Shown piece by piece: positions 1 through 33,082 of a DNA stretch of 33,283 bases. Within the stretch, counting starts at the first letter, position 1. The number at the start of each line of letters is the position of its first letter. The notes beneath the pieces are model-generated. The model ran no database searches. It had not been told where the DNA came from and worked only from the letters and a program-made list of their open reading frames with translations. The stretch is from Verrucomicrobiota bacterium (GTDB lineage Bacteria > Verrucomicrobiota > Verrucomicrobiia > Chthoniobacterales > UBA10450), in assembly GCA_003218975.1 (NCBI GenBank), contig QHPD01000119.1, positions 1 through 33,283 on the forward strand. The letters run 5' to 3'. The position numbers and the translations under genes were made by a program.

Positions 1-157
1 CGAAATGAAAACCCTTATAAGTGACCGTGCGCGAAATGCCGCCGACATACACCGGGTCGGCTTCCAGGACATTGACGCCGATTTCCTCCTTCGACAGGAG
101 GTAGCCCGCGGTCAAACCCGCCGGCCCGGCGCCGATAATGGCGACTTTTGTCTTCAT
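1..157 (-). CDS. FAD-dependent oxidoreductase, N-terminal fragment (runs off window)
   Basis: The first 52 codons of a minus-strand gene are visible, and the rest lies outside the window. The protein starts MKTKVAIIGAGPAGLTAGYL, a GxGxxG dinucleotide-binding fold at residues 8-13. It continues with an acidic residue near position 33 that would bind the FAD ribose, then a GGISRTV segment. The GGISRT pattern is typical of flavoproteins of the protoporphyrinogen-oxidase, amine-oxidase and UDP-galactopyranose-mutase type. The ATG follows the stop of the upstream glycosyltransferase gene by 6 bp, and a purine-rich AGAGGAA ribosome site overlaps that stop, so the two are co-transcribed and probably coupled. 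The neighbouring glycosyltransferase suggests sugar or polyprenyl-linked glycan metabolism, but the substrate cannot be read from this fragment. Confidence 0.8.
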   Translation of the reverse strand, partial: MKTKVAIIGAGPAGLTAGYLLSKEEIGVNVLEADPVYVGGISRTVTYKGFHF

Positions 158-5135: not shown

Positions 5136-7804
5136 TCACTCCGTAATTTCGTCTGTGACATGGCGCTTATTCGCCTCAACCACGCTCTCGCAACGGTCGC
5201 ATAAATCAGGATGCGTCTTGCTTGAACCAACAGCTGGCCGATGACGCCAGCAACGCGCGCATTTTTGATACAATGTTTTCATGACCGAAGCGCTCGCTTC
5301 TTTTGCCTGGTGGATTGTCAGATCGCTCAAAATAAAAAATTCCTCCAGCTCTTCCTTATCGATTTTTTCCGTGACATCGGAATCCGAATGCAAAACCACC
5401 GCCGCCTCCAGAGTATTCCCGATCAGTTTCTCTCGACGCGCGCGCTCGATCGCCTGCCCGATTACGCCGCGCAATCGCAGAAGCTCCGCAACCTGCGCGC
5501 TCGCTTTATCATGCCGACGTTGCGGTTCCGGAAATTCTTGCAGATGAACCGAACCGCCCGCTTCTGAATACCGCCACGCTTCCTCGGCGGTGAAGGCGAG
5601 AATCGGCGCGAGCAACCGGCAGAGGGCGTCGAAAATCTCGTGCATAACGGCTTGCGTCACGCGGCGACGGGGCGAATCCGGCGCGTCGCAATACATCCGG
5701 TCCTTGGTGATGTCGATGTAAAGACTGCTCAAATCGACTGCACAAAATTGATTGAGCGTGTGATAGACCTTGTGGAAGGCAAACTCCTCGTAAGCACTTC
5801 GACAGTCGCGGATCACGTCATTCAGTCGCTCCAGAATCCAGCGATCGATTAGCGTCGTAGCTCCGACATGTCGGGGTGATGCCGGCCGGGCGGGGTCACC
5901 TACCCCGGCTACAGGAAAATCATAAAGATTCCCCAGCAAAATGCGCAGCGTGTTTCTGACTCGCCGGTAGGTGTCGCCGAGGCGCGTAAACATTTCTTCG
6001 GAAAACGGAATTTCGAAATCTTTTTCCCGTCAAGATCGACAACGAAACCATGCGTGACGCAGATTTTGTACGGCGCGCGATTGTTCAGCGCGACGCTGGT
6101 CATGAGCGACGATTGAAACCAGCCGCGGTGCTGATCGGTCGCCTCGAGATACATGTCGGCCGGATCGCGCAATTCAGGACGCAGCGCGCAAACCGCTTTG
6201 TGCGAAACGCCGCTGTCGATCCAGACATCGATCGTGTCGTTGCGTTTCGTTGTGCCCGGCGGGAGGCCGAGTTGGCGGGCAAGATCGGCATCGTTCAACT
6301 CAAACCAAATGTTTGAACCGCGTTGGGCGACGAGATCGGCGAGCTTCCGAATAATTTTCGCGTCGAGAATTGCTTCTCCATCCTTTGAATAAAAAGCCGG
6401 GAGCGGCACGCCCCAGCTGCGTTGGCGTGAAATCACCCAGTCGGGGCGCGCTTCGACTGTGCCAGCGATGCGGTTCTCACCCCACGCGGGAATCCATTTT
6501 ACGTGTTTGATTGCATGCAGCGCTTTCCCGCGCAGCTCATCAATTCGAATGAAGAACTGTTCGACATTGCGGAAGATGATCGGTGTCTTCGAGCGCCAGC
6601 AGTACGGATAAGAATGATGAAATTTTTGCTCGCCGAGCAGCATACCGCGCTCGCGCAGCAAATTGACGATGTCGATGTTAGCGTCGAAGACGTATTTGCC
6701 AACAAGATTTGGCAAACCGGCTTCTTCTGTGAAACGGCCGTGATCGTCGACGGGCGACAATATCTGCAAACCTTTTTCTTTGCCTAACCAATAATCGTCT
6801 TCGCCGTGGCCGGGTGCGATGTGCACCGCTCCCGTGCCGGAATCCATGGTGACAAAATTGGCCGTGAACACCGTGACTTCCCGATCCAGGAAAGGATGGC
6901 GCGCTGTGACCTTGTCGATCTTCGCCCCCGGAAATGACTCCAGCGGTTTGCCGGCGGGATTCAGCCCCGTCGCCGCGCAAAAATGAGCAAGACGTTTCTC
7001 AGCCAGCAGGAGAATCGCGGAACCGTCCTTCTCTCGTATCGGTTTAAGTTCCTGGACGATATAAATTTCCTTGGGATCAACAGCGATCGCCAGATTCGCC
7101 GGCAATGTCCATGGCGTCGTTGTCCAGATGGCGATGCTCGCCTTGTCTTTGAACTCGCCGCTGGTGATTGGGAATTTGACGTAAACGGCGGTGTCATCGC
7201 GCTCCTGATATTCCACTTCGGCCTCGGCGAGCGCGGTCTGCGCGCCGGTGCTCCAGAAGACCGGCTTCTTCGATTGGTAAACCAAGCCTTCCTCCACGAA
7301 AACAGCGAACGCGCGCAGGATTTCCGCTTCATATTTGGGATCCATCGTCAAATATGGATTTTCCCAATCGCCGAAGACGCCCAGCCGCTTGAACTGCTCG
7401 CACTGGATGTTGATGAATTTTCGCGCGAACGCCTCGGATTTTTTGCGGACCTCGAGCGGAGAAAGAGCGCGCGATTCTTTGACCACTTTGTATTCGATCG
7501 GAAGCCCGTGACAATCCCAGCCGGGAACGTACGGCGCGCGCCTGCCGAGCATCGTCTGCGATTTCACCACGAAATCTTTGAGAATTTTGTTGAGCGCCGT
7601 GCCCATGTGGACGTCACCGTTGGCAAAAGGCTGACCATCATGGAGGACGAATAGTTCTCGATCCTCTCTGGATTTCTGGATTTGCTGGTAAAGCCGCGTC
7701 TCCTCCCAAACTCTGAGCAGCTCCGGCTCGCGCGCGGCGAGGTTCGCCTTCATCGGGAATTCCGTGCGCGGCAAATTAAGCGTTTCTTTGTAATTCTGGC
7801 TCAT
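5136..7804 (-). pseudogene. ileS: Isoleucyl-tRNA synthetase, broken by a deletion/frameshift
   Basis: This would charge tRNA-Ile with isoleucine. The first part starts at MSQNYKETLNLP (ATG at 7804). It has the HIGH-equivalent GDVHMGTALN, the editing domain (TTTPWTLPANLA, GTGAVHIAPGHGEDD) and the catalytic DVWIDSGVSH, and reaches THGFVVDLDGKKISK. There the frame breaks near 6020-6035. The second part resumes in another frame as DFEIPFSEEMFTRLGDTYRR and ends with the anticodon-binding domain and a four-cysteine zinc site (CARCWRH...CDRC). Compared with the family, about 30 residues are missing: the end of KMSKS and the helix containing the usual KYGADILRLW. A palindromic repeat adds about 21 residues after NLYDF. 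An essential gene broken like this is either a true pseudogene with a second copy elsewhere or an assembly/sequence error. Confidence 0.85.
5857..5912. repeat. Palindromic repeat inserted in frame inside ileS
   Basis: The ends are GTAGC (5857-5861) and GCTAC (5908-5912). Inside are a CGACATGTCG palindrome and CGGGGT/ACCCCG complementary blocks around GGCCGG. Read with ileS it adds about 21 codons rich in P, A, G and R (from PVAGVGDPARP to VGATT), between the conserved NLYDF and LIDRWILERLND segments, without breaking the frame. This resembles the Rickettsia palindromic elements known to insert inside coding genes, although no relationship is claimed. Confidence 0.7.
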
Positions 7805-7983
7805 GATCAGCGGCTGATGGCTACGTAGCATCCGCCTCTGCACAAATCAATGAACCCAAGATGAGCGTTTTCTGTGGCCGCTTCGGTTAGCAATCCGTTG
7901 CGGGCAGCGGCACCAGCAGGGCAGAGTAAGATTCGTCTCGACGCGGGCTTGATTTTGGCGCGGCTTTTTATTTTTATCGCAAT

Positions 7984-8751
7984 GTGTCCGCTGACGACGA
8001 GATGGCTTCACTCAGTGCGATTGGTGGAGGCACGCAAGGCGGTGCGGTAGCGTTTGCCACCACGCATTGGAGCGTGGTGCTAACCGCGCAGGGCGAATCA
8101 CCGGCGGCACAAGAAGCTCTAGAAAAACTTTGCCGCACATACTGGCGACCGATTTATGGTTTCGTGAGGAGACAGGACGTTGAACCAGAAGAGGCGAAAG
8201 ATCTCACCCAGGGCTTTTTTGCGCTGCTTCTGGAGCGTCGGGATCTGGATGCTGTGCGCAAAGAGAGAGGGCGTCTGCGCTCTTATCTGCTCACCTCGCT
8301 CAAACATTTCCTGACGAACGAGCGGCATCGCGCCATGGCCATCAAGCGGGGCGAAGGCCAGCGGTTGATCCCACTAGAGGAGTTGCGCGACCGTGAGCGT
8401 GGCGGTTTCGAACCGGCGAATGCATCGACTGCTGACCAACTTTACGAGCGCCGCTGGGCTTTGGCGTTGCTAGATCAAGTGCTGACGCGATTGGGAGATG
8501 AATATCGGGCCGCTGGCAATATCACGCTGTTCGAACGCTTGAAAGCGTTGCTCACGGACGAACCGGACCGCCTGTCGCAGGCGCAAATTGCCGATGAACT
8601 GGGGATGACTGAGAATGCGCTCAAGCAAGCGTTCCATCGCCTGCGCGAACGCTACCGACAATTGTTGCGGGAGGAAATCGTCCATACTGTAATGGCGCCG
8701 GGAGATATCGAAGATGAGCTGCGCCATCTGATTGCCGTATTGCGCGCATAA
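7984..8751 (+). CDS. ECF-like RNA polymerase sigma factor
   Basis: A 255-residue sigma factor with the TTHWSVVLTA start of the expanded ECF-like sigma group common in Planctomycetota, Verrucomicrobiota and Acidobacteriota. Region 2 is seen in LCRTYWRPIYGFVRRQ..EAKDLTQGFFALLLERRDL and the following LTSLKHFLTNERHR. Region 4 is the helix-turn-helix LSQAQIADELGMTENALKQA with FHRLRERYRQLL, near residues 200-230. The frame opens with a GTG at 7984, but the ATG at 8002 (MASLSAIGG) is equally possible. The kinase gene starts 57 bp downstream on the same strand. In these phyla such sigma factors commonly sit beside Ser/Thr kinases, which suggests phosphorylation-based control; this is inference. Confidence 0.85.
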   Translation: MSADDEMASLSAIGGGTQGGAVAFATTHWSVVLTAQGESPAAQEALEKLCRTYWRPIYGFVRRQDVEPEEAKDLTQGFFALLLERRDLDAVRKERGRLRSYLLTSLKHFLTNERHRAMAIKRGEGQRLIPLEELRDRERGGFEPANASTADQLYERRWALALLDQVLTRLGDEYRAAGNITLFERLKALLTDEPDRLSQAQIADELGMTENALKQAFHRLRERYRQLLREEIVHTVMAPGDIEDELRHLIAVLRA

Positions 8752-13777: not shown

Positions 13778-14965
13778 ATGACGGCTTTCCTTGATCAAAT
13801 ATTTGTTCGCGGAAAGCAAACGCTGCTTGCACCGATGGCGCATGCACCGGGCTGGCTGGTGCAGATTGTTTCGAGTCTGATTAATATTTTCGCTCTGCTC
13901 GCCGTGTTTCTCACGCTCTTCGCGCTCATCTCGGTGTTGGAGCGGAAAATTCTCGCACGGATGCAGAACCGCTACGGACCGAATCGCGTGGGGCCATTCG
14001 GTCTTTTTCAGCCAATCGCTGACGGCATCAAAATGCTGATCAAGGAAGACATCGTGCCGGCGAGGGCCGACAAGCTCGTGCATTTCCTCGCGCCGGTCCT
14101 CATCGCTGCTGTAGCGATCCTCACCCTGGGCGTGATTCCGTATGGGCGGAACATGACCCCGTTTGCCATTGACGGTGGCATACTCTTTTTCTTTGCCGTG
14201 GGATCGGCCACGGAGTTGGCAGTCTTCATGGCCGGCTGGGGCAGCAACAATAAATTTTCCATGCTCGGCGCGATGCGCGCGATTGCCCAAATGTTCAGCT
14301 ACGAGCTGCCGCTCATCATCGCTGTGCTACCCGTGGTGATGGTGGTCGGCTCGCTTATGCCCGACCGAATCGTTGCAGCGCAAGCGCAATACACGTTTGG
14401 CTTGGTACCGCGCTGGTTTGTCTTCACGCCTTGGGGCGCAGCGGCGTTCATTCTATTTTTTGTATCCGGTCTGGTGGAATCGAACCGCACGCCGTTCGAC
14501 GTGCCCGAAGGCGAATCGGAAATCGTCGCCGGGCACATGACCGAGTATTCTGGATTCAAATATGCCACGTTTTTCATGGCGGAATACCTCGGGATGTTCG
14601 CCATCAGCGGGCTCGGTGTGACGTTGTTCCTCGGGGGCTGGCATGCGCCTGCGGGTGCGCTTGAGTTCCTCCCATCGTACGTCTGGTTTTTCGCCAAGCT
14701 GAGCGCGCTGCTATTCGTTTACATCTGGGTCCGTGGAACGCTCCCGCGCACGCGCATCGATCAAATCATGAATTTGGCCTGGAAATTCATGTTGCCAATG
14801 GCATTCGCCTGCGTTATCGCCGCTGCCGTTTGGCACTATGCCGGGCGCGGCTTGCGGGGATGGCTGTGGTCGCTGGTGGTGATCGCAATTGTCTATACTC
14901 TCCTGTCGATCTTGCTCGACACGCGCAGGAAGTTCGCTCCGCGCGTTTATCGCTTCGCTGAATGA
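13778..14965 (+). CDS. nuoH: NADH-quinone oxidoreductase subunit H
   Basis: A 395-residue membrane subunit that joins the peripheral and membrane arms of complex I and forms part of the quinone site. Diagnostic stretches are ERKILARMQNRYGPNRVGP, QPIADGIKMLIKEDIVP and RTPFDVPEGESEIVAGHMTE. The ATG is preceded by a purine-rich AGCAGAG. Its stop overlaps the nuoJ start as ATGA. It is the first gene of the operon visible here. Complex I subunits A-G and I are not in the window, and nuoI, which usually follows nuoH, is absent. Confidence 0.95.
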   Translation: MTAFLDQIFVRGKQTLLAPMAHAPGWLVQIVSSLINIFALLAVFLTLFALISVLERKILARMQNRYGPNRVGPFGLFQPIADGIKMLIKEDIVPARADKLVHFLAPVLIAAVAILTLGVIPYGRNMTPFAIDGGILFFFAVGSATELAVFMAGWGSNNKFSMLGAMRAIAQMFSYELPLIIAVLPVVMVVGSLMPDRIVAAQAQYTFGLVPRWFVFTPWGAAAFILFFVSGLVESNRTPFDVPEGESEIVAGHMTEYSGFKYATFFMAEYLGMFAISGLGVTLFLGGWHAPAGALEFLPSYVWFFAKLSALLFVYIWVRGTLPRTRIDQIMNLAWKFMLPMAFACVIAAAVWHYAGRGLRGWLWSLVVIAIVYTLLSILLDTRRKFAPRVYRFAE

Positions 14966-15444
14966 ACAGCGCCGCATTCGTTGTCATTGCGATTTTCACG
15001 CTCGCCGCGGCACTGGCGGCCGCGACTCTGCGAAAACTGATGCACGCTGCGCTCAGTTTCGCGGTGGCATTCGTAGGGCTGGCGTCCTTTTTCTTTCTGC
15101 TGGGTGCGGAGTTCGTCGGCCTGGCGCTGGTGTTCATTTACATCGGGGCGGTCGCGGTGCTGATCGTTTTCACCATTCTCCTGACGCGGCGCGATGTCGG
15201 AAAAGATCGCGGTTTTAATTGGAGCGGCATTGTGATCGCCCTTGCCATGTTCGGCGCTTTAACGTGGTCGATTCTAAAGACGCAATCACTCGCCATTGTC
15301 GCCCCGCACATTCGCGCGCTAACGGTCAAACAAATTGGCGCAGCATTGATGACCACTTATGTCTGGCCACTGCAATGCGTCGGGCTTCTGCTTACTGCCG
15401 CGCTGATCGGCGCGCTTGTTCTTGTGATGGAGGAGAAGCGATGA
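14962..15444 (+). CDS. nuoJ: NADH-quinone oxidoreductase subunit J
   Basis: A 160-residue five-helix subunit of the complex I membrane arm. LHAALSFAVAFVGLASFFF, GAEFVGLALVFIYIGAVAV and ILLTRRDV are the usual NuoJ segments. Its ATG overlaps the nuoH stop. Its own stop lies in GCGATGACG, where an ATG (15441) preceded by a strong GGAGG (15429-15433) would be the natural start of nuoK. Instead this ATG opens a 64-codon frame through the repeat at 15461-15615. Confidence 0.93.
   Translation: MNSAAFVVIAIFTLAAALAAATLRKLMHAALSFAVAFVGLASFFFLLGAEFVGLALVFIYIGAVAVLIVFTILLTRRDVGKDRGFNWSGIVIALAMFGALTWSILKTQSLAIVAPHIRALTVKQIGAALMTTYVWPLQCVGLLLTAALIGALVLVMEEKR
15429..15443 (+). promoter_or_regulatory. Strong Shine-Dalgarno and orphan ATG at the nuoJ stop
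   Basis: GGAGG (15429-15433) is 7 nt before the ATG at 15441, which overlaps the nuoJ TGA. The ATG starts a 64-codon frame ending at TGA 15633-15635, which itself overlaps the nuoK ATG (15632). NuoK has no visible Shine-Dalgarno of its own. Confidence 0.7.
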
Positions 15445-15460
15445 CGTGCGGAATTCCAAC

Positions 15461-15615
15461 TTGGGTAGCATACGCGTCACGCGTGTTGGCGAGCGCGTCC
15501 TCGCGGTCGCGGGCTTTCCTTGCGACTTCCTCCCGCCCAGCACTGACGAGATTCAAAGAAAAGCTTGTTTCGGCGCGACGCCGAAACCAGCACGCGAGGT
15601 GCGTGCGCTCCCCAA
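15461..15615 (+). repeat. Operon repeat copy A (nuoJ/nuoK junction)
   Basis: The ends form an inverted repeat of about 27 bp, starting TTGGGTAGCATACGCGTCAC and ending in GTGCGCTCCCCAA. Inside is a perfect 9-bp hairpin, GTTTCGGCG/CGCCGAAAC (15567-15587). The same design is seen at 19628, 32045 and 33100. No transposase is present, so it looks like a MITE- or REP-like element. A 64-codon frame (15441-15635) runs right through it. The nuoK frame is also open through it from GTG 15446, so an automatic start call for nuoK would be about 62 residues too long. Confidence 0.85.
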
Positions 15616-15631
15616 TCCAGTTCGCCACGCA

Positions 15632-15946
15632 ATGACCCCAACTCTCCAAGTTTTCCTCATCGTATCTGCCGCGCTATTTTCCATCGGCTTGCTCGCCGCA
15701 CTGAGCCGGCGTCACGCGATTTTCATCCTGATCGGCATCGAGTTGATGCTTGCCGCGGCGAACCTGAATTTCATCGCGTTCTGGCGTTTCGCTCCGCAGT
15801 CAAAACAACCAATTGGCGTGATGATCGCAATCTTTTCCATCGCCATTTCAGCTGCCGAGGCCGCTGTTGGTCTTGCGATGGTTATCGCCGTTTACCGCCA
15901 CTATCGCACGACGAACGTCGATCAACTCGACCAGCTTAAAGGATGA
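15632..15946 (+). CDS. nuoK: NADH-quinone oxidoreductase subunit K
   Basis: A 104-residue three-helix membrane subunit of complex I. The conserved glutamate is in GIELMLAAANLNFIAF, and the second in ISAAEAAVGLAMVIAVYRH. The start MTPTLQVF (15632) gives the normal family length. The frame is open further upstream only because it passes through the repeat. Its stop overlaps the nuoL start as ATGA (15943). Confidence 0.92.
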   Translation: MTPTLQVFLIVSAALFSIGLLAALSRRHAIFILIGIELMLAAANLNFIAFWRFAPQSKQPIGVMIAIFSIAISAAEAAVGLAMVIAVYRHYRTTNVDQLDQLKG

Positions 15947-17940
15947 ATTTCCGGATCGTCACTAATCTGTGGTTGATCCCGGCTGTGCCATTCGCGGCTT
16001 CGCTGGTAATTTTGAGTTTGTCAAAGGCGCGGCGCAAAACCGCAGCCGCGCTTGCTGTCGCTGGGCAAATCGCCGCGCTCGCAATGTCGGTCTTGGCATT
16101 CCTGCCAACGCTGCAAACGAACAACTTCCGCGTCGTTCAGAATTTTACTTGGTTCACTTTCGGCGAAGAAGTGTTACGCCTGGGATTTGTTCTTGATCCG
16201 CTTGCTGCCGCAATGCTGATGATGATCGCGCTGGTCGGCCTGTGCATTTTTGTCTTCAGCATCGGCTACATGGCCGATGACAAACGTTTCACCCGATTCT
16301 TTGCGTACCTATCGTTCTTCTCCGGCGCGATGCTCGGGTTGGTCATCGCGAACAGTTTGCTGCTCCTTTTCGTTTTTTGGGAGCTGGTGGGGCTCGCCTC
16401 CTACCTGCTCATCGGGTTCTGGATCGAGCGACCGAGTGCAGCGGCCGCTGCAAAAAAGGCGTTCATTACTACGCGCATTGGCGACATGGGATTTTTTCTC
16501 GGGATGCTTTGGCTCTACAATCGCAGCGGCACACTGCTCTTTTACGATGGAGGGACCGGTTGTCTTGAAAGCGCCGGCCTCGCCCTGCTCGGCGCAAGCG
16601 CCACGTTCATTGTGCTGCTGATTTTCTTCGGCGCCGTTGGCAAATCGGGGCAATTCCCGCTGCATGTGTGGCTGCCAGACGCAATGGAAGGCCCGACCCC
16701 CGTCAGCGCGTTGATTCACGCGGCAACGATGGTGGCCGCCGGCGTGTTTCTGGTCGCACGCGTCTATCCGCTTTTCTCGTTAGGCGCGATCAACGGCGTG
16801 ACCTCGTCGCTCACTGTCGTTGTATGGATCGGTGTAACCACGGCGCTTATGGCTGCGCTAATTGCGATTGCGCAGGCGGACATCAAACGCATCCTCGCGT
16901 ATTCCACGGTATCGCAACTTGGTTTGATGATGGTGTCGTTAGGCGTCGGCGGCGTCCCGGCCGGCATAATGCATTTGCTGGCTCACGGTTTTTTCAAAAC
17001 GCTGTTGTTCCTCGGCGCGGGCTCCGTGATTCACGGATGTCACGGCGAACACGACATTCGCAAAATGGGCGGTCTCCGGCGTGTCATGCCGGTGACGTTT
17101 TTCACTTATGCCATTGGGATGATGGCGCTCAGTGGCGTGCCGTTCTTTTTTTCGGGTAGCTGGACGAAAGAAGAAATTCTGCACGCCACGGCGCACTGGC
17201 CGCGATCGCATGCACCGTATTATCTGATTCTGGCTGGAATTATTCTCACCGCGCTCTACATGACGCGCCAAATCATCTACGTCTTTTTCGGCAACGCACG
17301 CGCTGCGTCGGACCGCGTGCACGAAAGCCCGCGCGTCATGACGATGCCGCTGACCGCGCTGGCGCTTTGCACAATTTTCTTCGGCGTAGTGCTCACTTCT
17401 GCGTGGCCATGGCTGCACGCATATCTCACCGGCGAACCTGCGCACTTCGAGATCACACGCCTGATTCAGCCGATGTTCTTCGTCTCGCTCGTGCTCGTCA
17501 GTGCCGGTGTCGTGCTCGGCATCTGGATGTATCGCAAAGCTGGCGCGCAAGCTCGAGATCGTCCGGCTGAGATCGACCCGCTCGAATACGCGCAACCGGC
17601 GTTGTTTCGATTTCTCGCGAACAAAATGTGGATCGACGAATTTTACGGCCGCACGGTGATCGCGTTCAGTTGGGCGGGCGCGCGTTTGTCCGACTGGATG
17701 GATCGCTATTTCTGGGATGGCCTCGTGCGCGGCTTCGGCGCAGTCGGCCAACTTTTCGCAATGTTCACGACCAGCGTCGATGAGCGCGGCATCAATGCCG
17801 GAGTCGATGAAACGACCGCCGGGACGCGCGGTCTGGGCCGCCTCTTGTCCACCACACACTCGGGACAAATCCAAATCTACCTCGGCGTGGTCGCCATTGG
17901 CATGCTGGCACTGCTCCTTCTCTACGCATGGTTGGCCTGA
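15943..17940 (+). CDS. nuoL: NADH-quinone oxidoreductase subunit L (antiporter-like)
   Basis: A 665-residue antiporter-like proton-pumping subunit, slightly longer than E. coli NuoL (613). The TM5 glutamate is in LFVFWELVGLASYLLIGFW, the D178-equivalent in TRIGDMGFFLG, the TM7 lysine in AVGKSGQFPLHVWLPDAMEG, the next lysine in HGFFKTLLFLG and the K399-equivalent in SWTKEEIL. All proton-pathway residues that can be assigned by eye are present. It overlaps nuoK by 4 bp and nuoM by 13 bp. Confidence 0.95.
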   Translation: MNFRIVTNLWLIPAVPFAASLVILSLSKARRKTAAALAVAGQIAALAMSVLAFLPTLQTNNFRVVQNFTWFTFGEEVLRLGFVLDPLAAAMLMMIALVGLCIFVFSIGYMADDKRFTRFFAYLSFFSGAMLGLVIANSLLLLFVFWELVGLASYLLIGFWIERPSAAAAAKKAFITTRIGDMGFFLGMLWLYNRSGTLLFYDGGTGCLESAGLALLGASATFIVLLIFFGAVGKSGQFPLHVWLPDAMEGPTPVSALIHAATMVAAGVFLVARVYPLFSLGAINGVTSSLTVVVWIGVTTALMAALIAIAQADIKRILAYSTVSQLGLMMVSLGVGGVPAGIMHLLAHGFFKTLLFLGAGSVIHGCHGEHDIRKMGGLRRVMPVTFFTYAIGMMALSGVPFFFSGSWTKEEILHATAHWPRSHAPYYLILAGIILTALYMTRQIIYVFFGNARAASDRVHESPRVMTMPLTALALCTIFFGVVLTSAWPWLHAYLTGEPAHFEITRLIQPMFFVSLVLVSAGVVLGIWMYRKAGAQARDRPAEIDPLEYAQPALFRFLANKMWIDEFYGRTVIAFSWAGARLSDWMDRYFWDGLVRGFGAVGQLFAMFTTSVDERGINAGVDETTAGTRGLGRLLSTTHSGQIQIYLGVVAIGMLALLLLYAWLA

Positions 17941-19403
17941 TTACGGCGATTATTTTCATCCCGCTCCTCGGAGCGCTCGCGGTCTGCACGTGGCCGCAAA
18001 GGAATTGCCGCCCAATCGCTCTGATGTTCAACGCCATCTCCGCTGCGTGTGCTCTCGGACTGTGGCGAAATTTCGACCCCACCGCGACCGGCCTCCAATT
18101 GGTGGAACGCCATGATTGGATTCCCGTTATCGGTGCCGAGTATCTGGTGGGCGTCGATGGCCTGAGCCTCCTTCTCGTCCTGCTCACCTCGCTGATCATC
18201 CCCTTTGCATTTCTCGCACAGCGAATGGACCGCGGCTTCTGCGCGACCATGCTGGTAATGCAATCCGCCCTCTACGGGACGTTCACGGCGCAGAATTTCG
18301 TTCTCTGGTTTTTATTCTACGAAATGAGCCTGGTCCCTGCGTTTCTGCTGATCAAAATCTGGGGCGGTGAAAATCGTGATCGCGCGGCGACCAAGTTCTT
18401 CCTCTACACATTCCTCGGCAGCGTGGCGATGTTGCTGTCGTTCCTGGGAATTTATTTCGCCAAGGGCACGTTCGACTTTTCTGCTCTCGCCGACCTTGGA
18501 AAAAACGGTCTGCTGACCGGCAAGCTCGCATGGATCGCTTTTGCCGGGATCTTTCTCGGGCTCGCAGTCAAAGTGCCGCTTTTCCCATTTCACACCTGGC
18601 TGCCGGACGCCTATCAAAGCGCGCCTACCGGCGTTTCGATGGTATTGACGGGCGTGCTCTCAAAAATGGGAGTTTACGGTTTTGTGCGCCTTCTGCTTCC
18701 GCTTTTCCCAAAGGAAATCAAGATCATCGGCCCGTGGCTTCTTGCGTTAGCGGTCTGTTCGATCGTCTTTGCTCCGCTTGCCGCGTGGGCACAGCGCGAT
18801 TTGAAACGAATGGTCGCTTACTTGTCGATCAACCATCTCGGTTACTGCATGCTCGGCCTGTTTGCCGTAGCCGCCCCACCTGTCGTTGCTGCGAGGATCG
18901 ACACGCACGCAGCGTTGAGCGGCGTGTTCATGCAAATTTTCAATCACGGAATCACTGCGGCTACGCTGTTCTACTTCATCGGTTTGCTCGAGCAACGCCG
19001 CGGTCGGCGCGGCATCGACGACTTCGGCGGGTTGATGCAGCAGACCCCACTGCTCTGCGGCTGGATGAGCGTGGCAATGTTTTCATCTCTGGGTCTGCCG
19101 GGACTAAACGGATTCATCGGTGAGTTCTTAATCTTCAAAGGCTCATTCGCTATCGCTGCTTCCTTTACGGCGATTGCTGTGATTGGTCTTCTCGTCACAG
19201 CCATCGCGTTCGCGCGCGCCATGCAATCCCTATTCAGCGGGCCACTCACAGGAAACTGCGGCGCGTTTCCCGATCTTCTCCGCAGCGAGAAACTCATCAT
19301 CGTCCCTATGATATTGCTCATGTTCGCCATCGGCATCACACCGCAATTCATGTTGAACATCTTCAACACAACCGTGGCTCAAATGGCGCGGCTGTTTGCG
19401 TGA
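17928..19403 (+). CDS. nuoM: NADH-quinone oxidoreductase subunit M, first copy
   Basis: A 491-residue antiporter-like subunit. TM5 glutamate: FLFYEMSLVPAFLL. TM7 lysine: AVKVPLFPFHTWLPDAYQ (Lys215). TM8 lysine: LSKMGVYGFVR. TM12 glutamate: GFIGEFLIF. This copy keeps every pump residue. It overlaps nuoL by 13 bp. Its TGA (19401-19403) is inside GTGA, and a five-codon GTG frame leads to a second ATGA at 19414, where the ORF6N remnant frame starts. Confidence 0.93.
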   Translation: MVGLITAIIFIPLLGALAVCTWPQRNCRPIALMFNAISAACALGLWRNFDPTATGLQLVERHDWIPVIGAEYLVGVDGLSLLLVLLTSLIIPFAFLAQRMDRGFCATMLVMQSALYGTFTAQNFVLWFLFYEMSLVPAFLLIKIWGGENRDRAATKFFLYTFLGSVAMLLSFLGIYFAKGTFDFSALADLGKNGLLTGKLAWIAFAGIFLGLAVKVPLFPFHTWLPDAYQSAPTGVSMVLTGVLSKMGVYGFVRLLLPLFPKEIKIIGPWLLALAVCSIVFAPLAAWAQRDLKRMVAYLSINHLGYCMLGLFAVAAPPVVAARIDTHAALSGVFMQIFNHGITAATLFYFIGLLEQRRGRRGIDDFGGLMQQTPLLCGWMSVAMFSSLGLPGLNGFIGEFLIFKGSFAIAASFTAIAVIGLLVTAIAFARAMQSLFSGPLTGNCGAFPDLLRSEKLIIVPMILLMFAIGITPQFMLNIFNTTVAQMARLFA

Positions 19404-19413
19404 CGACACTCGG

Positions 19414-19785
19414 ATGAAAGTTGAGATCATTCCCGCAGAGCACGTGGTGCAGAAACACAACGCACAGCGTTTTCCTTCTGACTTCATGCTCCGGCTCACC
19501 GCTGATGAAGTGCGAAACTTGAGATGCCAGTTTGGAATATCAAAATGGGGCGGCCGCCGAGCGTTTCCTTACGCGGTCACCGAGCAAGGTATTGCGATAT
19601 TGTTCAGCGTATTGAACAGCAAGCGCGCTGGGGAGCGCACGCGCATCGCGTGCTGGCGATGGCGACCTCGCCATCGCAAACTTTTGCCAGACAATCTACC
19701 TTCTCGGTTGGCAACAAATTTCACCAATTGCTTTTCGGCGAGGCGCCGAAAAGGACACGCGGGGCGCGTGTGCTCCCCAGAATGA
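19414..19785 (+). pseudogene. ORF6N-domain (phage KilA-type) remnant fused to a repeat
   Basis: The frame MKVEIIPAEHVV..RFPSDFMLRLTADEVRN..SKWGGRRAFPYAVTEQGIAILFSVLNSKRA matches the core of the ORF6N domain, a DNA-binding module of phage and mobile-element proteins (family pattern RFPxDFMFQLT...SxWGGRRYxPYAFTEQG). The N-terminal part of the domain before this core is missing. After SVLNSKRA the sequence enters repeat copy B, so the C-terminal part is lost as well. The frame stays open to TGA 19783-19785, which overlaps the nuoM2 ATG. It is almost certainly not a working ORF6N protein. It is a foreign fragment inside an otherwise vertical-looking nuo operon. Confidence 0.7.
19628..19780 (+). 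repeat. Operon repeat copy B (between the two nuoM genes)
   Basis: Inverted ends start CTGGGGAGCGCACGCG and finish in CGTGTGCTCCCCAG. The inner hairpin is CTTTTCGGCG/CGCCGAAAAG. The architecture matches copies A, C and D, but the middle is diverged. It directly follows the truncated ORF6N domain. The nuoM2 frame is open from 19524 through this repeat, which would wrongly lengthen that gene by 86 residues. Confidence 0.8.
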
Positions 19786-21263
19786 TCGCCTGGACGATTT
19801 ACCTCACGTTTGCGGGCGCAGTGTTGTTGATCCTTTTGCCGCGCCCGTTTGCGCGCTGGATCGCGCTGTTTACAACCATCGCAGGCTTGGCCCTGGGCCT
19901 CATCGCATTTGTCCACACTTCAATCGCAGATCTGGCGCATTTCACCACGATCGTGCGCGTGCCGTGGGTGCCGGCGCTCGGGATGAATTACCATCTCGCG
20001 ATTGATGGCGTCAGCCTGACGATGGTTCTTGTCACAGGAATCTCCGCGGTGAGCACCGTGCTCTTCTCGTGGGATGTCGAACATCGGCAGAACGAATTCT
20101 TCTTTTGGTTGCTGTTAGTGGTCGGCGGCTGCTACGGCGTTTTCCTCAGCGCCGATTTGTTTTTGCTCTTCGGGTTCTACGAGCTGGTGATCGTGCCGAA
20201 GTATTTTCTCATCGCGATCTTCGGATCGACCAACAAGGAATACGGAGCGATGAAGTTGACGCTCTACTCTTTTTTCGGCGGCATGTTCGTTTTCGCTGGA
20301 ATCCTTACCGCCTACGCGACCGCTGGCTCTTTGGATCTGAATGAGCTCTCCCGCTTCCAGTTTCCGGGGCAACTGCAATCGTGGGCATTTCCGGTGCTCT
20401 TCCTCGGCTTCGCTGTGCTTGCCGGTATCTGGCCATTGCATACCTGGGCGCCGACAGGCCATGTCGCCGCGCCCACTGCGGGCTCGATGTTGCTCGCGGG
20501 CATTGTTATGAAGCTCGGCTCTTACGCAGGACTCCGCGTGGCAATGAATCTCTTCCCGCAAGGATTCCAAGCATGGAGTAAGTGGATCGCCCTGTTCGCC
20601 GTGATCGGAATCGTCTATGCGGCAGCCGTTGCACTGCGCCAGCGCGACCTGAAATTTGTAATCGGCTATTCGAGCGTGAGTCACATGGGTTTCGTGCTGC
20701 TCGGTTTGGCTACAGCAAACGCGCTTGGCGTTTCAGGTGCGGTGCTGCAAATGTTTTCCCATGGCGTGATTGCGGCCCTTTTGTTCGCCGTGGCGGGACG
20801 AATGATTTATCGCCGCACGCACACGCGTGAGCTTGACGCGCTTGCCGGCATGAATCTGAGTGGCGCGCTGCCGTTCGCCGCGTTCACGTTCGTGATCGCA
20901 TCGGCTGCGTCGATGGGCATCCCTGGGTTCAGCGGATTCGCCGCTGAGATCACCATTCTCATTGGCACATGGAAAACTTATCCGCTTGCGGTCTGGATCA
21001 CCGGCGCGGGCATTGTGCTCGTCGCTGCATTCACATTGCGTGCCTTAAAGCAATCGTTCTTCGGCGAGGCGAGGCCAAGTGTCCTCATGCAGGAAGGTCG
21101 GGTAGCGCTGGACCTGGATTGGAATGAGCAACAGAGCATTACGCCGGCGGAGAAATGCGGAGCTTGCCTGCTGATGTCTGCAACGCTCGCAGTCGGGGTT
21201 TATCCCAAACTGCTGCTCGATCGAATCATGCCCGCCGTCGACGCGATGAGGTTTTTGAAATGA
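19782..21263 (+). CDS. nuoM: NADH-quinone oxidoreductase subunit M, second copy
   Basis: A 493-residue NuoM paralogue starting MIAWTIYLTFAG. TM5 glutamate: LLFGFYELVIVPKYFL. TM8 lysine: IVMKLGSYAGLR. TM12 glutamate: SGFAAEITIL. At the TM7 lysine position (K215 in the first copy) it reads AVLAGIWPLHTW, so Leu213 replaces the central pump lysine. The sequence is distant from the first copy and belongs to a different NuoM subgroup rather than a recent duplication. Chosen start: the ATG at 19782, which overlaps the upstream TGA; no ribosome site is visible. The presence of two M subunits fits the variant called 2M complex I. Confidence 0.92.
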   Translation: MIAWTIYLTFAGAVLLILLPRPFARWIALFTTIAGLALGLIAFVHTSIADLAHFTTIVRVPWVPALGMNYHLAIDGVSLTMVLVTGISAVSTVLFSWDVEHRQNEFFFWLLLVVGGCYGVFLSADLFLLFGFYELVIVPKYFLIAIFGSTNKEYGAMKLTLYSFFGGMFVFAGILTAYATAGSLDLNELSRFQFPGQLQSWAFPVLFLGFAVLAGIWPLHTWAPTGHVAAPTAGSMLLAGIVMKLGSYAGLRVAMNLFPQGFQAWSKWIALFAVIGIVYAAAVALRQRDLKFVIGYSSVSHMGFVLLGLATANALGVSGAVLQMFSHGVIAALLFAVAGRMIYRRTHTRELDALAGMNLSGALPFAAFTFVIASAASMGIPGFSGFAAEITILIGTWKTYPLAVWITGAGIVLVAAFTLRALKQSFFGEARPSVLMQEGRVALDLDWNEQQSITPAEKCGACLLMSATLAVGVYPKLLLDRIMPAVDAMRFLK

Positions 21264-21299
21264 AAGCCGTTGATCTGCCGATTTAATGCTTCAACGATG
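21260..21299 (+). promoter_or_regulatory. Chain of overlapping mini-frames between nuoM2 and nuoN
   Basis: The nuoM2 TGA overlaps an ATG (21260) opening MKAVDLPI, stop TAA 21284-21286. That stop overlaps ATG 21286 (TAATG) opening MLQR, stop TGA 21298-21300. That stop overlaps the nuoN ATG 21297. No Shine-Dalgarno is visible before nuoN, so coupling by reinitiation is plausible. Confidence 0.5.
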
Positions 21300-22832
21300 A
21301 GCTATCTCGAACTGCTCAAGCTCGCGTCGACCGAAGCTGTCGTCGTCGTTACGGCGCTGGTAGTCCTTGCGATTGGCCTAACGACTCGGCGCGAGGCTAC
21401 GGGTGTAACGGTGGCAACGGCGCAAGGAGATCAAAATGTAGGCGGCAGCTCTAGCGCTCGAACTAATGCGATCTGCTCGTTCATCGCCGCACTCGGGCTC
21501 GCAATCGCAATAGGCACAGCGCTGATGTTGCCGCGCAAGGCGACGCTTTTTAGCGGGATGCTTGTGATCACACCGCTGACGTCGCTGTTCAAAATTATCT
21601 GCATGGCGCTCGCTTTTTTTGCAGTCCTCCTAACGAAATCCGAAAAGTCCCTGCGTCATCCCGGCGAATATCTGGCCATTCTTTTGCTCGCAACGGTTGG
21701 CCTGATGCTCCTGGTCAGTAGCGAAGAGTTGCTCATGATTTTCATCGGACTCGAACTGCTCGGCCTGTCGCTTTATGTGATGGTCGCATTCGACAAGACG
21801 GATGTGCGTTCGGCGGAAGCGGGCCTGAAATATTTCCTGTTCGGCAGCACGTCGAGCGCGTTCACACTTTTCGGAATCAGCTTGATCTACGGAATGTCGG
21901 GGATAACCAGTCTTGCGGCGATTTCAGAAAAATTGGCCACTGTGTCAGTGCAGCCATTGCTAGCAGTTGGGATCGTCATGACGCTCATCGGGTTCGCGTT
22001 TAAGATCGCGGCCGCGCCATTTCATCTTTGGGCGCCGGACGCCTACCAGGGCGCGCCTATTCCGAGCGCGGCGTTCATCGCTTCCGGTTCAAAGGTCGCA
22101 TCATTCGTCGTGCTGGGGAAAATCGTTCTCGTCGGGTTTGCTCCGCTGCACGGCGACGCTGCGTGGCACGCCATGGTGGCTGGATGGTCGCCCGTGCTCG
22201 CGGCGCTGGCAGCATTATCGATCCTGGTCGGCAATTTCGTCGCCCTTGCGCAATCGAACCTGCGCAGACTTCTCGCTTACTCTGCTGTCGCACACGCCGG
22301 TTACACATTGATCGGACTAGTGGCCGGTGACCGCGAAGGATTTTCCGCGGCATTGTTCTACACCACGACTTACGCCATCACACTAGTTGGCGCATTCGGA
22401 GTGGTTGCTCTGGTTCGGCGCGAAACGGCCGGCGACGATTTCTCAAACTTTTCGGGATTGATTTCGCGTTCTCCCATGCTCGCGGGCTGCATGTCGATCT
22501 TTATGTTGTCACTGGCGGGCATACCGCCGCTTGCCGGATTTTTTGGAAAATTCTACCTGTTTAGCGTCGCGCTTCGAGCCGACGCAGGCCATGGACTTCT
22601 CTGGCTCGTCGCAGTCGCGCTTTTTGGCAGCCTCATCTCGCTCTATTATTACCTGATCGTGCTGAAAGTGATTTTCGTGGATGAGCCGTCGCTTGCAATC
22701 GCTTCATCGCCCGATCACCTGTCGCCCGATTTACTGCAGCGAATCGCGGTCGCTGTGCTTGCCGCGGTAGTTCTCTTCCTTGGCTTAATGCCGGACGCGC
22801 TGGCGGCGGGGCTCCTTGCCGCCATGCCATAG
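21297..22832 (+). CDS. nuoN: NADH-quinone oxidoreductase subunit N
   Basis: A 511-residue antiporter-like subunit and the last gene of the operon. TM5 glutamate: MIFIGLELLGLSLYVMVAFDK. TM7 lysine: GFAFKIAAAPFHLWAPDAYQG. The C-terminal LAGIPPLAGFFGKFYLF is typical NuoN. Start MSYLELLKL at 21297, not the upstream TTG frame start at 21270. No terminator with a T tract is seen within 90 bp downstream. Confidence 0.94.
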   Translation: MSYLELLKLASTEAVVVVTALVVLAIGLTTRREATGVTVATAQGDQNVGGSSSARTNAICSFIAALGLAIAIGTALMLPRKATLFSGMLVITPLTSLFKIICMALAFFAVLLTKSEKSLRHPGEYLAILLLATVGLMLLVSSEELLMIFIGLELLGLSLYVMVAFDKTDVRSAEAGLKYFLFGSTSSAFTLFGISLIYGMSGITSLAAISEKLATVSVQPLLAVGIVMTLIGFAFKIAAAPFHLWAPDAYQGAPIPSAAFIASGSKVASFVVLGKIVLVGFAPLHGDAAWHAMVAGWSPVLAALAALSILVGNFVALAQSNLRRLLAYSAVAHAGYTLIGLVAGDREGFSAALFYTTTYAITLVGAFGVVALVRRETAGDDFSNFSGLISRSPMLAGCMSIFMLSLAGIPPLAGFFGKFYLFSVALRADAGHGLLWLVAVALFGSLISLYYYLIVLKVIFVDEPSLAIASSPDHLSPDLLQRIAVAVLAAVVLFLGLMPDALAAGLLAAMP

Positions 22833-28572: not shown

Positions 28573-28798
28573 GGATGTAAGCTACGAATCGTGCAGGCAG
28601 TGAATCTCAGCGCTCTCACTTAGGATCGTTTACATAAGCAGCGGGTCGTTGGCAAGGCGCGTGGCGTCTTACACGAGACCGTGATATGGGCGAGGTTCGA
28701 CAACGATCAGGTTCAAAATGTGCGTCAACGGAACTGACGATTGGCGTCGAGAATTCGTTGACTCGACTTTCACGCGTCCAAGTCGCATTATTCATGCG

Positions 28799-31700
28799 AT
28801 GCGTCTGAGGATGATTTCCCTCCTCTCAAAATGGCCGCTTGTTCGCCAAATTCGCGAACGCAAGGTTGGCACCGGTCTCGAATCGATGTCGGACAAGACG
28901 CGTGCGCTGCATGCCAGGACAGATAGTGCGCAGGTCGCGCGCTCGATTTGTCCTTACTGCGGAGTCGGATGTGGGCAGCTCATTTACCATAAGGACGGGA
29001 AACTGATTTCAATCGAGGGCGACCCGGAAAGTCCAATCAGCCAGGGAAATCTTTGTCCAAAGGGCGCAGCGTCATATCAACTGCTCACGCATTCGCGACG
29101 CGAAGCGAAAATGAAATATCGCGCGCCGCGGGCGAAAACGTGGAGTGAAATTTCACTCGATCGCGCCATGGACATGGTGGCGGAGCGCGTTTGGGAATCG
29201 CGCAAGCGCACGTTTGTTCGTGAAAAAGACGGATCGGCAGTCAATCATACGACCGCGATTTGTCACCTCGGCGGCGCGACGCTGGATAACGAAGAAAATT
29301 ATCTGATCAAAAAACTTTTCACCGCCGGCCTGGGCATGGTCTGCGTGTCCAACCAGGCCCGCATATGACATAGCAGCACGGTGCCCGGTCTGGGCACCTC
29401 CTTTGGCCGAGGCGGAGCTACGACCGCGCAACAAGATCTAGCCAACGCGGATTGTATTTTAATCGAAGGCTCCTCCATGGCTGAGGCGCATCCGGTCGGT
29501 TTTCGCTGGGTGATGAAAGCGAAGGAGCGCGGCGCGACAATCATCCATGTCGATCCGCGTTTTTCGCGCACCAGCGCGCTGGCCGATATCTGGGTGCCGC
29601 TGCGCGCCGGCACCGACATTGCCTTTCTCGGCGGACTCATCAGACACCTCATCGAGAACGACCTCTTCTTTCGCGAGTACGTTGTTCATTACACGAATGC
29701 CTCCTGCATCTTGAGCGACGAATTCCGCGACCCGGAAGATAACGCGGATGGCTATTTCTCCGGTTGGAACGAAGAGAAGCGCGCCTACGAGGGTGACAGC
29801 TGGTTCTACAAAGGCAACGATCTGAGTCGTCCACAGCGCGACCTCACATTGCAAGATCCACAATGTGTTTTTCAGAAATTGAAACGGCATTTCTCCCGCT
29901 ATACACCAGAGATGGTGGAGAAAATCTGCGGCGTTCCGCCGGAGCTCTTCCATAAGGTCGCGGACGCGCTCGTTGCAGCATCAGGGCCCGAGAGGACCGC
30001 CGCGGTTTGCTACGCAGTAGGGTGGACGCAGCATTCCAAGGGAGTGCAGATCATTCGCACGGCTGCGATCTTGCAGTTGCTGCTAGGGAATATCGGCCGG
30101 CCTGGCGGGGGAATTCTCGCGTTACGCGGGCACGCTTCGATCCAGGGTTCGACCGATATCCCGACCCTTTACGACATTCTTCCCGGCTACCTGACAATGC
30201 CGCACAAAGGCGACGAGACGCTTCAACAGTATCTCGATAAATACACGAAAAAGACCGGCCTCTGGGCGGATTACCCGAAATACCTCGTCAGCACGATCAA
30301 GGCGTATTACGGGAAGCACGCGACCGCACAGAACGATTTCGGCTACAGTTGGCTTCCCAAACTCACCGGCAACCATTCCTTCTTCGAATTTCTTTACGAC
30401 ATGCTCGATGGAAAGATGGAAGGCATGTTTTTGATGGGACAGAACCCAGCCGTCGGCGCGCCCAATTCGCGGCTCCAGCGAAAAGCGCTGTCGAAACTGA
30501 AATGGCTGGTCGTGCGAGACATGGTGGAAATCGAGTCGGCGAATTTCTGGCGCGAATCACCGGAGATCGAGCGCGGAGAATTAATGCCCGAGGATATCGA
30601 GACAGAAGTTTTCTTTTTCCCAGCCGCCGGTCATGCCGAAAAGGAAGGGGCATTCACCAACACGCAGCGGCTTTTGCAATGGCGCGAGAAGGCCGTTGAT
30701 CCGCCCGGGGATTGTCGCTCCGACGCGTGGTTCGTTCATCAACTTGCATTGCGCTTGAAGGCGAAAGCAAAAGCATCGGACGACCCGATCGACGAACCAT
30801 TGCGCGCGCTCGACTGGTGGTATCCCGAGGACGAACTCGGCGAGCCGAAAATGGAGGCGGTGCTCGCGGAGATTAACGGCTGGAAGACAGCAATTCAGCC
30901 TAACGAGTCCGGCGTTCTCTTCGAGCAAGATCGGCAAGGCCAACCTCATCACGGCCCGCAGGTGAATGGTTTCGCCGAATTGAAAGCCGACGGGTCCACT
31001 GCATGCGGCTGCTGGATTTATTCCGGCGTTTTTGGCCGCGATGGCGTGAACAAGGCAAACTCACGCAAACCCAAAGGCTATCTCGGCCACGGCTGGGGTT
31101 TCAGTTGGCCGAGCGATCGCCGGATCATTTACAATCGTGCCAGTGCGCGACCGGACGGCAGTCCTTGGAGCGAACGGAAAAAATTGGTCTGGTGGGACTC
31201 GGAAAAATGGACGGGTATAGACGTTCCGGGCTTCGTAAAGGGAAAAGCTCCGGAGTACCAACCGGATGAAGCCGCAGAAGGCTTGGATGCCATTCCCGGT
31301 GATGCGCCATTTATTCTGCACGAGGATGGACTGGGCTGGCTTTATGTTCCGAAAGGTTTGCAGGACGGGCCGTTGCCGACTCATTATGAGCCGCTCGAGT
31401 CCCCTGTCTCAAACGAACTTTATTCGCACGACACCAATCCGCCCGTGAACTGGTTTACACGTGGCGAAAATCGCTTTGCGCCGCCGGGCGATACAAGGTT
31501 TCCATTTGTGCTGACCACTTATCGGCTGACCGAACACCATACCGCCGGCGGCATGTCGCGCTTTCTCAGTCATCTCGCGGAATTGCAGCCGGAAATGTTC
31601 GCCGAGATTTCGCCGGAGTTGGCCACTCAGCTTAAGATCGACAATGGCGATTACATCTGCGTCGTTACTTTGCGCGGCGCAATCGAAGCGCGCGCTCTCG

Positions 31701-32035
31701 TCAGTCGCCGGATTCGGCCGTTGCGCATCAATGGCAAGGAAGTGCACCAAGTCGCGTTGCCCTACCATTACGGGACGGCCGGAGTAGTGCGCGGTGGCGC
31801 GGCCAATGATCTTCTCACCGTCTCCGGCGAACCGAACGTCACCATCATGGAAGCCAAGGCGCTCACCTGCAACGTCGTGCCCGGGCGTCTGCCGCGTGGA
31901 CGCGCCTTCGGCGACTTCCTCGAGAAATACGCGCCGCAAGCAGGACTGTCGCCTATTCATCCCGAACAACCGCCGCTGGGCGCGCGCAAAGGCCGAGAAA
32001 AGATCCACGGTCACGCGCAGGAAGGAAAAACATGA
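28799..32035 (+). CDS. Selenocysteine-containing formate dehydrogenase catalytic subunit
   Basis: Molybdenum/tungsten bis-MGD formate dehydrogenase that oxidises formate to CO2. The [4Fe-4S] site is CPYCGVGC..LCPKG. The frame then runs to NQARI, a TGA (29366-29368) and HSSTVPGLGTSFGRGG, exactly where this family has its catalytic Sec or Cys, so TGA codes Sec190 of about 1078 residues. Reading TGA as stop would split the gene at 29368. Middle and C-terminal molybdopterin domains follow (MFLMGQNPAVGAPN, TYRLTEHHTAGGMSR, PYHYGTAGVVRGGAANDLL). Start: ATG 28799, with 28811 (MISLLSKWPLVRQ) a good alternative. No twin-arginine signal is seen, so the enzyme should face the cytoplasm. Its stop overlaps an ATG with a strong SD, followed by repeat copy C. 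The 226-bp upstream gap shows no other gene. Confidence 0.93.
29366..29398 (+). promoter_or_regulatory. UGA-Sec codon and bacterial SECIS hairpin
   Basis: After the TGA (29366-29368) come 11 nt, then a perfect 7-bp stem GGTGCCC (29380-29386) and GGGCACC (29392-29398) with loop GGTCT (29387-29391). The distance from TGA to the GGTCT loop is 18 nt. This matches, in distance and loop sequence, the E. coli fdhF SECIS that SelB binds. The bulged U of the E. coli version is not seen. Confidence 0.85.
32019..32034 (+). promoter_or_regulatory. Strong Shine-Dalgarno and orphan ATG at the fdh catalytic-subunit stop
   Basis: AGGAAGGA (32019-32026) is 5 nt before the ATG at 32032, which overlaps the TGA of the catalytic subunit. 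The ATG opens a 62-codon frame through repeat copy C, not the ferredoxin subunit. Confidence 0.65.
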
Positions 32036-32200: not shown

Positions 32201-32224
32201 TCCGCGTCATCCGCGCATGAAATA

Positions 32225-33082
32225 ATGATCGGCGAGGGAACACAAAGCACGAACCAGCGCCGGCACAATTACGTGCAGGAAAATGTCGAGGTCGGCTTCT
32301 TCACCGATCCGACAGTGTGCATCGGTTGCAAAGCGTGCGAAGTCGCGTGCAAAGAATGGAACGAAGTGCCCGACGACGGCTTTACTTGGTCCGGGAATTC
32401 TTACGATAACACCGGACGGCTCGGCGCATCGACTTGGCGGCACGTCTTGTTTCTCGAACAGGACCGACCAAAGGGACAGCAAGTTGTCGGTTCGTTGGGC
32501 AATGGAGAAGATCCATTTCGCTGGGTTTTCCTTTCGGACGTTTGCAAGCACTGCGAGGAAGCAGGCTGCCTCGAAGCGTGTCCAACCGGTTCAATCGTGA
32601 GGACTGAAGTCGGCTCTGTTTTTGTGCAGAACGACGTGTGCAACGGCTGCGGATATTGCATCGTGTCGTGCCCTTTTGGCGTAATCGATCGCCGGCCGGA
32701 ACCGCTGCCCGACGCCGGCGGCGCGTTTAAATGCACGTTCTGTTATGATCGACAAAAAAGCGGGTTGGTGCCCGCGTGCGCAAAAGTTTGTCCAACCGAA
32801 TCGATTGTCTTTGGGCGGCTTGACGATTTGCGTGCGCGCGCGTCACAACGCGTGCAGCAGCTCAAACAAAACGGATACGACGACGCACAAGTCTACGATC
32901 CTCTGGAGACTTCAGTTCGCGGAATTCACGCGTTCTTTCTGATTCTCGGCGAACCAGAAGCGTACGGGCTTCCTCCAAAGCCACAGGTCCCGACGATTTA
33001 TTTGAAATCCGCATGGACCTCCGCCATCGCGACCGCAATCGGTGCGCTCATCATAATACTGTGCGCTTTCGCATTTCTATGA
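32225..33082 (+). CDS. Formate dehydrogenase iron-sulfur subunit
   Basis: A 285-residue electron-transfer subunit with four [4Fe-4S] cluster motifs: CIGCKACEVAC, CKHCEEAGCLEACP, CNGCGYCIVSCPFG and CTFCYDR...CAKVCP. A C-terminal membrane helix (AWTSAIATAIGALIIILCAFAFL) anchors it, as in the FdnH/FdoH type. Chosen start is ATG 32225 (MIGEGTQ). The frame is open from 32129 only because it runs through repeat copy C. No Shine-Dalgarno is visible. It probably passes electrons from the catalytic subunit to a membrane cytochrome or quinone subunit. Its own stop overlaps an ATG (33079) that opens a frame into repeat copy D. Confidence 0.92.
   Translation: MIGEGTQSTNQRRHNYVQENVEVGFFTDPTVCIGCKACEVACKEWNEVPDDGFTWSGNSYDNTGRLGASTWRHVLFLEQDRPKGQQVVGSLGNGEDPFRWVFLSDVCKHCEEAGCLEACPTGSIVRTEVGSVFVQNDVCNGCGYCIVSCPFGVIDRRPEPLPDAGGAFKCTFCYDRQKSGLVPACAKVCPTESIVFGRLDDLRARASQRVQQLKQNGYDDAQVYDPLETSVRGIHAFFLILGEPEAYGLPPKPQVPTIYLKSAWTSAIATAIGALIIILCAFAFL

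What the first reader, a model, noticed from the sequence alone, without database searches (positions are those of the whole stretch)
29366..29398. In-frame TGA is selenocysteine with a SECIS very close to E. coli fdhF
The TGA sits at the catalytic Sec position (NQARI-Sec-HSSTVPG). The GGTCT apical loop starts 18 nt after it, on a 7-bp stem. Both the loop and the spacing match the E. coli fdhF SECIS. Standard annotation would split this gene into two.
Basis: partly seen in the sequence, partly recalled or inferred. Interest (0 to 1): 0.72.

Follow-up and report, generated by a model that had tools for sequence, protein, structure and literature searches.

The report
Selenocysteine formate dehydrogenase with bacterial SECIS
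The stop codon inside this gene is read as the amino acid selenocysteine, so the two apparent genes are one formate dehydrogenase; the reading is sound, but it is an ordinary member of the most widespread bacterial selenoprotein family.

Summary
TGA 29366-29368 lies in frame inside one formate dehydrogenase alpha-subunit gene (about 28811-32035, +). It aligns exactly with the selenocysteine of solved E. coli FDH-N (1kqf). A 7-bp hairpin follows, with loop GGUCU starting 18 nt after the codon, meeting every published bSECIS criterion. The genome carries the complete selenocysteine machinery in one cluster: selC (anticodon UCA), selD (itself with an in-frame TGA), selA, selB and a SelW-like CxxU gene. 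Of 77 relatives, 74 have TGA at this codon. The loop codon GGT is used 69 of 70 times against 9.5 expected, and two wobble positions of the stem covary with six inferred double compensatory changes, so the RNA hairpin itself is under selection. Two Streptomyces homologues with TGC have lost loop and stem. One correction: the likeness to the fdhF SECIS is limited to loop, spacing and general form. The stem has no bulged U, overall identity is 24/42 nt (the same as to fdnG), and the protein belongs with FdnG/FdoG rather than FdhF. It is a new member of a known kind. Mildly noteworthy: the Sec trait and this selenoenzyme are widespread across a genus of uncultured soil Verrucomicrobiota.

The parts
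28811..32035 (+). formate dehydrogenase alpha subunit (FdnG/FdoG type), one ORF read through the TGA; the open frame's first ATG is at 28718 but relatives align only from ATG 28811
   Evidence: NF041513 1553.7 bits (cut-off 1400), TIGR01553 996.3 bits (cut-off 814.2); 41% identity to FdnG over 1005 columns; most relatives match from residue 31-32
29366..29368 (+). in-frame TGA = selenocysteine codon (residue 217 of the 28718 frame)
   Evidence: TGA in 74 of 77 relatives; aligns with the Sec (X) of 1kqf
29380..29398 (+). bacterial SECIS hairpin: stem GGUGCCC/GGGCACC, apical loop GGUCU at 29387-29391
   Evidence: loop codon GGT 69/70 vs 9.5 expected; wobble pair 29383-29395 covaries, 6 inferred double changes
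32216..33082 (+). formate dehydrogenase beta subunit, 4Fe-4S clusters and C-terminal hydrophobic segment; start inferred from conserved MIGEGTQSTNQRR
   Evidence: TIGR01582 180.6 bits, below its 334.7-bit cut-off; Pfam Fer4 domains; same start motif in L023 and L030

Best explanation
The gene is a Mo/W-bis-MGD formate dehydrogenase alpha subunit whose catalytic residue is selenocysteine. During translation the hairpin just downstream of the UGA is bound by SelB carrying Sec-tRNA(Sec) (anticodon UCA), and the UGA is decoded as Sec instead of a stop. Sec then serves as metal ligand and catalytic residue for formate oxidation. Electrons pass through the Fe-S beta subunit encoded next, and in relatives to an NrfD-type membrane subunit. 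Shown here by sequence: the continuous frame, the position of the Sec residue, the conserved and covarying hairpin, and the complete machinery. Inferred: actual Sec insertion, metal identity, electron acceptor and cytoplasmic location (no Tat motif seen in the N-terminal sequence).
For: Own genome has selA 465.8 bits (cut-off 267.9), selB 357.3 (242.25), selD 360 (125) and tRNA-Sec 66.9 (47), all over cut-off and within 5 kb on contig C53; ARAGORN calls tRNA-SeC, anticodon tca. TGA in 74 of 77 relatives from Verrucomicrobiota, Acidobacteria, Actinobacteria, Chloroflexi and others. Loop GGT 69/70 vs 9.5 expected; CCC 74/74 vs 19.7. Pair 15-27 (both wobble positions): paired in 64/68, shuffle mean 33, maximum 51; 6 double compensatory changes on the tree. 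Query residue 217 aligns to the Sec of 1kqf. The bSECIS criteria of PMC13188914 are all met. In L030, selB lies next to the FDH alpha-beta-NrfD genes.
Against: No direct evidence of Sec insertion. Hairpin energy is not better than shuffled sequence. In this assembly the FDH contig and the sel contig are separate, so linkage is not seen here. One relative (L042) has TCA at the codon.
Confidence: 0.98

Rival explanations
1. The TGA is a sequencing or assembly error for a Cys codon.
For: The genome is a fragmented assembly of 165 contigs; Cys homologues exist in Streptomyces.
Against: The same TGA occurs in 74 of 77 relatives from many separate assemblies, with a SECIS-type hairpin under selection that the two Cys homologues lack.
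Confidence: 0.005
2. The gene is a decayed pseudogene, or two separate genes split by a true stop.
For: Standard ORF calling gives two ORFs, 28718-29368 and 29381-32035.
Against: The stop is at the catalytic residue in nearly all relatives, both halves remain open and are conserved at 75-90% identity within the lineage, and the downstream half would start inside the active-site domain.
Confidence: 0.005
3. The TGA is read by another route, such as general TGA reassignment or near-cognate read-through.
For: None seen.
Against: TGA ends ordinary genes in this genome, for example selB and the FDH gene itself; a dedicated UCA tRNA-Sec, SelA, SelB and SelD are present.
Confidence: 0.01

Closest known systems
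E. coli FDH-N alpha subunit (fdnG; PDB 1kqf)
   Same: 41% identity across the whole protein; Sec at the same column; hairpin at the same distance from UGA; followed by an Fe-S beta subunit
   Different: No Tat motif seen in the N-terminus here; loop GGUCU instead of AGUCU; the membrane subunit in relatives is NrfD-type (the FdnI family was not searched for); SECIS region 24/42 nt identical
E. coli fdhF SECIS (formate dehydrogenase H)
   Same: GGUCU starting exactly 18 nt after UGA
   Different: fdhF has two short 3-bp stems separated by a bulged U, here one uninterrupted 7-bp stem; 24/42 nt identical; the protein is of the FdnG type
NF041513 formate dehydrogenases (actinobacterial and other soil bacteria)
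   Same: Best family match, over cut-off; the same kind of SECIS in Solirubrobacter, Conexibacter and others
   Different: Some Streptomyces members use Cys (TGC) and have lost loop and stem

Membership tests
Bacterial selenoprotein gene | In-frame UGA at a position that is Sec or Cys in homologues | tested here: met
Bacterial selenoprotein gene | Host genome encodes SelA, SelB, SelD and tRNA-Sec(UCA) | tested here: met
Bacterial selenoprotein gene | Selenium incorporated in the protein | not testable with these tools
   needs mass spectrometry or 75Se labelling
[quoted passage not shown]
   5-nt loop GGUCU, 7 bp, 18 nt, -14.6 kcal/mol
bSECIS element (model given in PMC13188914) | Base pairing maintained by compensatory change (my added test, not part of the model) | tested here: met
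   pair 15-27, six inferred double changes; outermost pair 12-30 only weakly kept, 56/68
E. coli fdhF-type SECIS | Bulged U between lower and upper stem | tested here: not met
   continuous stem in the window; bulge present in the fold of fdhF
Formate dehydrogenase-N alpha subunit family (TIGR01553) | Profile score over curated cut-off | tested here: met
   996.3 vs 814.2 bits
Formate dehydrogenase-N alpha subunit family (TIGR01553) | Tat signal and periplasmic location, as in FdnG | tested here: inconclusive
   no twin-arginine motif followed by a hydrophobic stretch visible in the translation; no signal predictor was run

The most novel reading that the evidence does not exclude
A Sec-dependent, NrfD-linked, apparently cytoplasm-facing formate dehydrogenase is a conserved energy enzyme of a genus of soil Verrucomicrobiota and the main selenoprotein that maintains the Sec trait there; this was not described in the papers searched.
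Probability: 0.35. Interest if true: 0.3.

Novelty: new member of a known kind. Interest (0 to 1): 0.12.

Why it matters
It corrects an annotation that ordinary gene callers would split in two, and documents the Sec-decoding trait with three candidate selenoproteins (FDH alpha, SelD, a SelW-like protein) in an uncultured soil Verrucomicrobiota lineage. FDH alpha is already recorded as the most widespread bacterial selenoprotein (PMC5029168), so it teaches little new about mechanism.

Tried and rejected
The Rfam scan of the window gave no match. Single-sequence folding energy was uninformative. Relatives with a TGA-FDH but no selA (G025, G034, G035, G038) were checked: G034 and G035 have tRNA-Sec hits over the cut-off and G034 a SelB-like hit cut at a contig edge, consistent with incomplete assemblies; tRNA-Sec hits near the cut-off are not specific, since genomes without selA also reach it. 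G038 stays open. Literature searches pairing Verrucomicrobia or Udaeobacter with selenocysteine, selenoprotein or formate dehydrogenase found no description of this case, judged from titles and abstracts.

Full report
Observation. The TGA at 29366-29368 interrupts one continuous frame. The upstream ORF ends with it, and the downstream ORF (mechanical start GTG 29381, end 32035) continues in the same frame. Read through, the product is 1105 residues from the first ATG of the frame at 28718. Relatives align only from residue 31-32, so the real start is probably ATG 28811. The context is NQARI-U-HSSTVPGLG.

Protein. The read-through protein passes the cut-offs of NF041513 (1553.7 vs 1400 bits) and TIGR01553, formate dehydrogenase-N alpha (996.3 vs 814.2). 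It has the Fe4S4, molybdopterin oxidoreductase and dinucleotide-binding domains. It is 41% identical to E. coli FdnG over 1005 columns. In the alignment to the solved enzyme 1kqf, residue 217 falls on the Sec, printed X. The next gene encodes an Fe-S beta subunit. The contig ends at 33283. In L030 and L036 an NrfD-type membrane subunit follows, and in L030 selB comes next, convergent.

Hairpin. Folded alone, the RNA after the UGA gives a 7-bp stem with loop GGUCU starting 18 nt after the codon. The energy is no better than in shuffled sequence (z 0.43), so energy is not the evidence. The published bSECIS constraints (3-9 nt loop, 4-16 bp stem, G in the first two loop positions, 16-37 nt spacing, MFE <= -7.5; PMC13188914) are all met.

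Relatives. Of 77 fetched sequences that cover the codon (the window's own copy included), 74 carry TGA, two Streptomyces carry TGC and one carries TCA. Among the TGA forms, the loop glycine codon is GGT in 69 of 70, where codon use in the rest of the same genes predicts 9.5. Leucine is CTG in 71 of 74 (27.1 expected) and proline CCC in 74 of 74 (19.7 expected). The two Cys forms have other codons in the loop region (GGC CTG and GGA CTC) and no matching stem. Stem positions 15 and 27 after the TGA are both wobble positions, so the protein does not constrain them. They are paired in 64 of 68 sequences against a shuffle mean of 33 and maximum of 51 in 10,000, and the tree gives six double compensatory changes (C-G to G-C, C-G to T-A, T-A to C-G). 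The tree used protein sequence without the SECIS-coding residues. The shuffle ignores relatedness, and some other wobble pairs reach z about 4 for that reason, so the count of double changes and the size of the 15-27 signal (z 7.9) are the better measures. The outermost pair 12-30 is poorly kept (56/68), so the conserved stem is about six pairs.

Machinery. Contig C53 of the same genome carries, on one strand within about 5 kb, tRNA-Sec (51909-51998, 66.9 bits, anticodon tca), selD, selA and selB, all over curated cut-offs. SelB has the C-terminal winged-helix domains (Pfam SelB-wing_2 and SelB-wing_3), the part that in characterised SelB proteins binds the SECIS (general knowledge). selD has an in-frame TGA in CAG-U-ASKL, and a small Rdx/SelW-like protein with CVVU lies next to the tRNA gene. 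Across 58 related genomes, selA over cut-off is found in most of the genus, and in the rest of the order only in G048, G049 and G055, which also carry long TGA-FDH matches; G038 has the FDH but no selA.

Comparison with E. coli. fdhF has the same GGUCU at the same distance. Its stem folds as 3 bp, a bulged U, then 3 bp, whereas the stem here is uninterrupted. Identity over the first 42 nt is 24/42 to fdhF and 24/42 to fdnG. Whether E. coli SelB would accept this hairpin is unknown.

Verdict. The selenocysteine interpretation is correct with high confidence. FDH alpha is the most widespread bacterial selenoprotein (PMC5029168), so this is a new member of a known kind. The taxon is inferred from relatives' record titles (Verrucomicrobia, Spartobacteria, Chthoniobacterales). 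Literature searches found no account of selenoproteins in this lineage, but the library holds only open-licence papers.

Noticed in passing
L103 around 6731-8128 (-), in G000:C53: selD of this genome has its own in-frame TGA (SLSSCAG-U-ASKLSQQ), so SelD is itself a candidate selenoprotein; no strong hairpin in a simple fold of the stretch after it.
   Followed up: partly
L103:8167-8406 (-), in G000:C53: A 79-aa Rdx/SelT-SelW-SelH family protein with CVVU (in-frame TGA) close to the tRNA-Sec gene; not a full ORF under the standard code.
   Followed up: partly
L042:146: One relative (Verrucomicrobia bacterium AV125) has TCA (Ser) instead of TGA with the hairpin intact; the codon lies 146 nt from a contig end, so this may be an assembly error or a recent change.
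   Followed up: no
L108 end and L109 start (genome G038): A 99% complete relative has two TGA-containing FDH genes, both cut by contig ends, but no selA or selB and no tRNA-Sec over cut-off; either an assembly gap or loss of the Sec machinery.
   Followed up: partly
window 13778-22832: Genes that look like respiratory complex I subunits (nuoH, J, K, L, M, N) with two consecutive NuoM-like ORFs (17928-19403 and 19524-21263); read from translations only.
   Followed up: no
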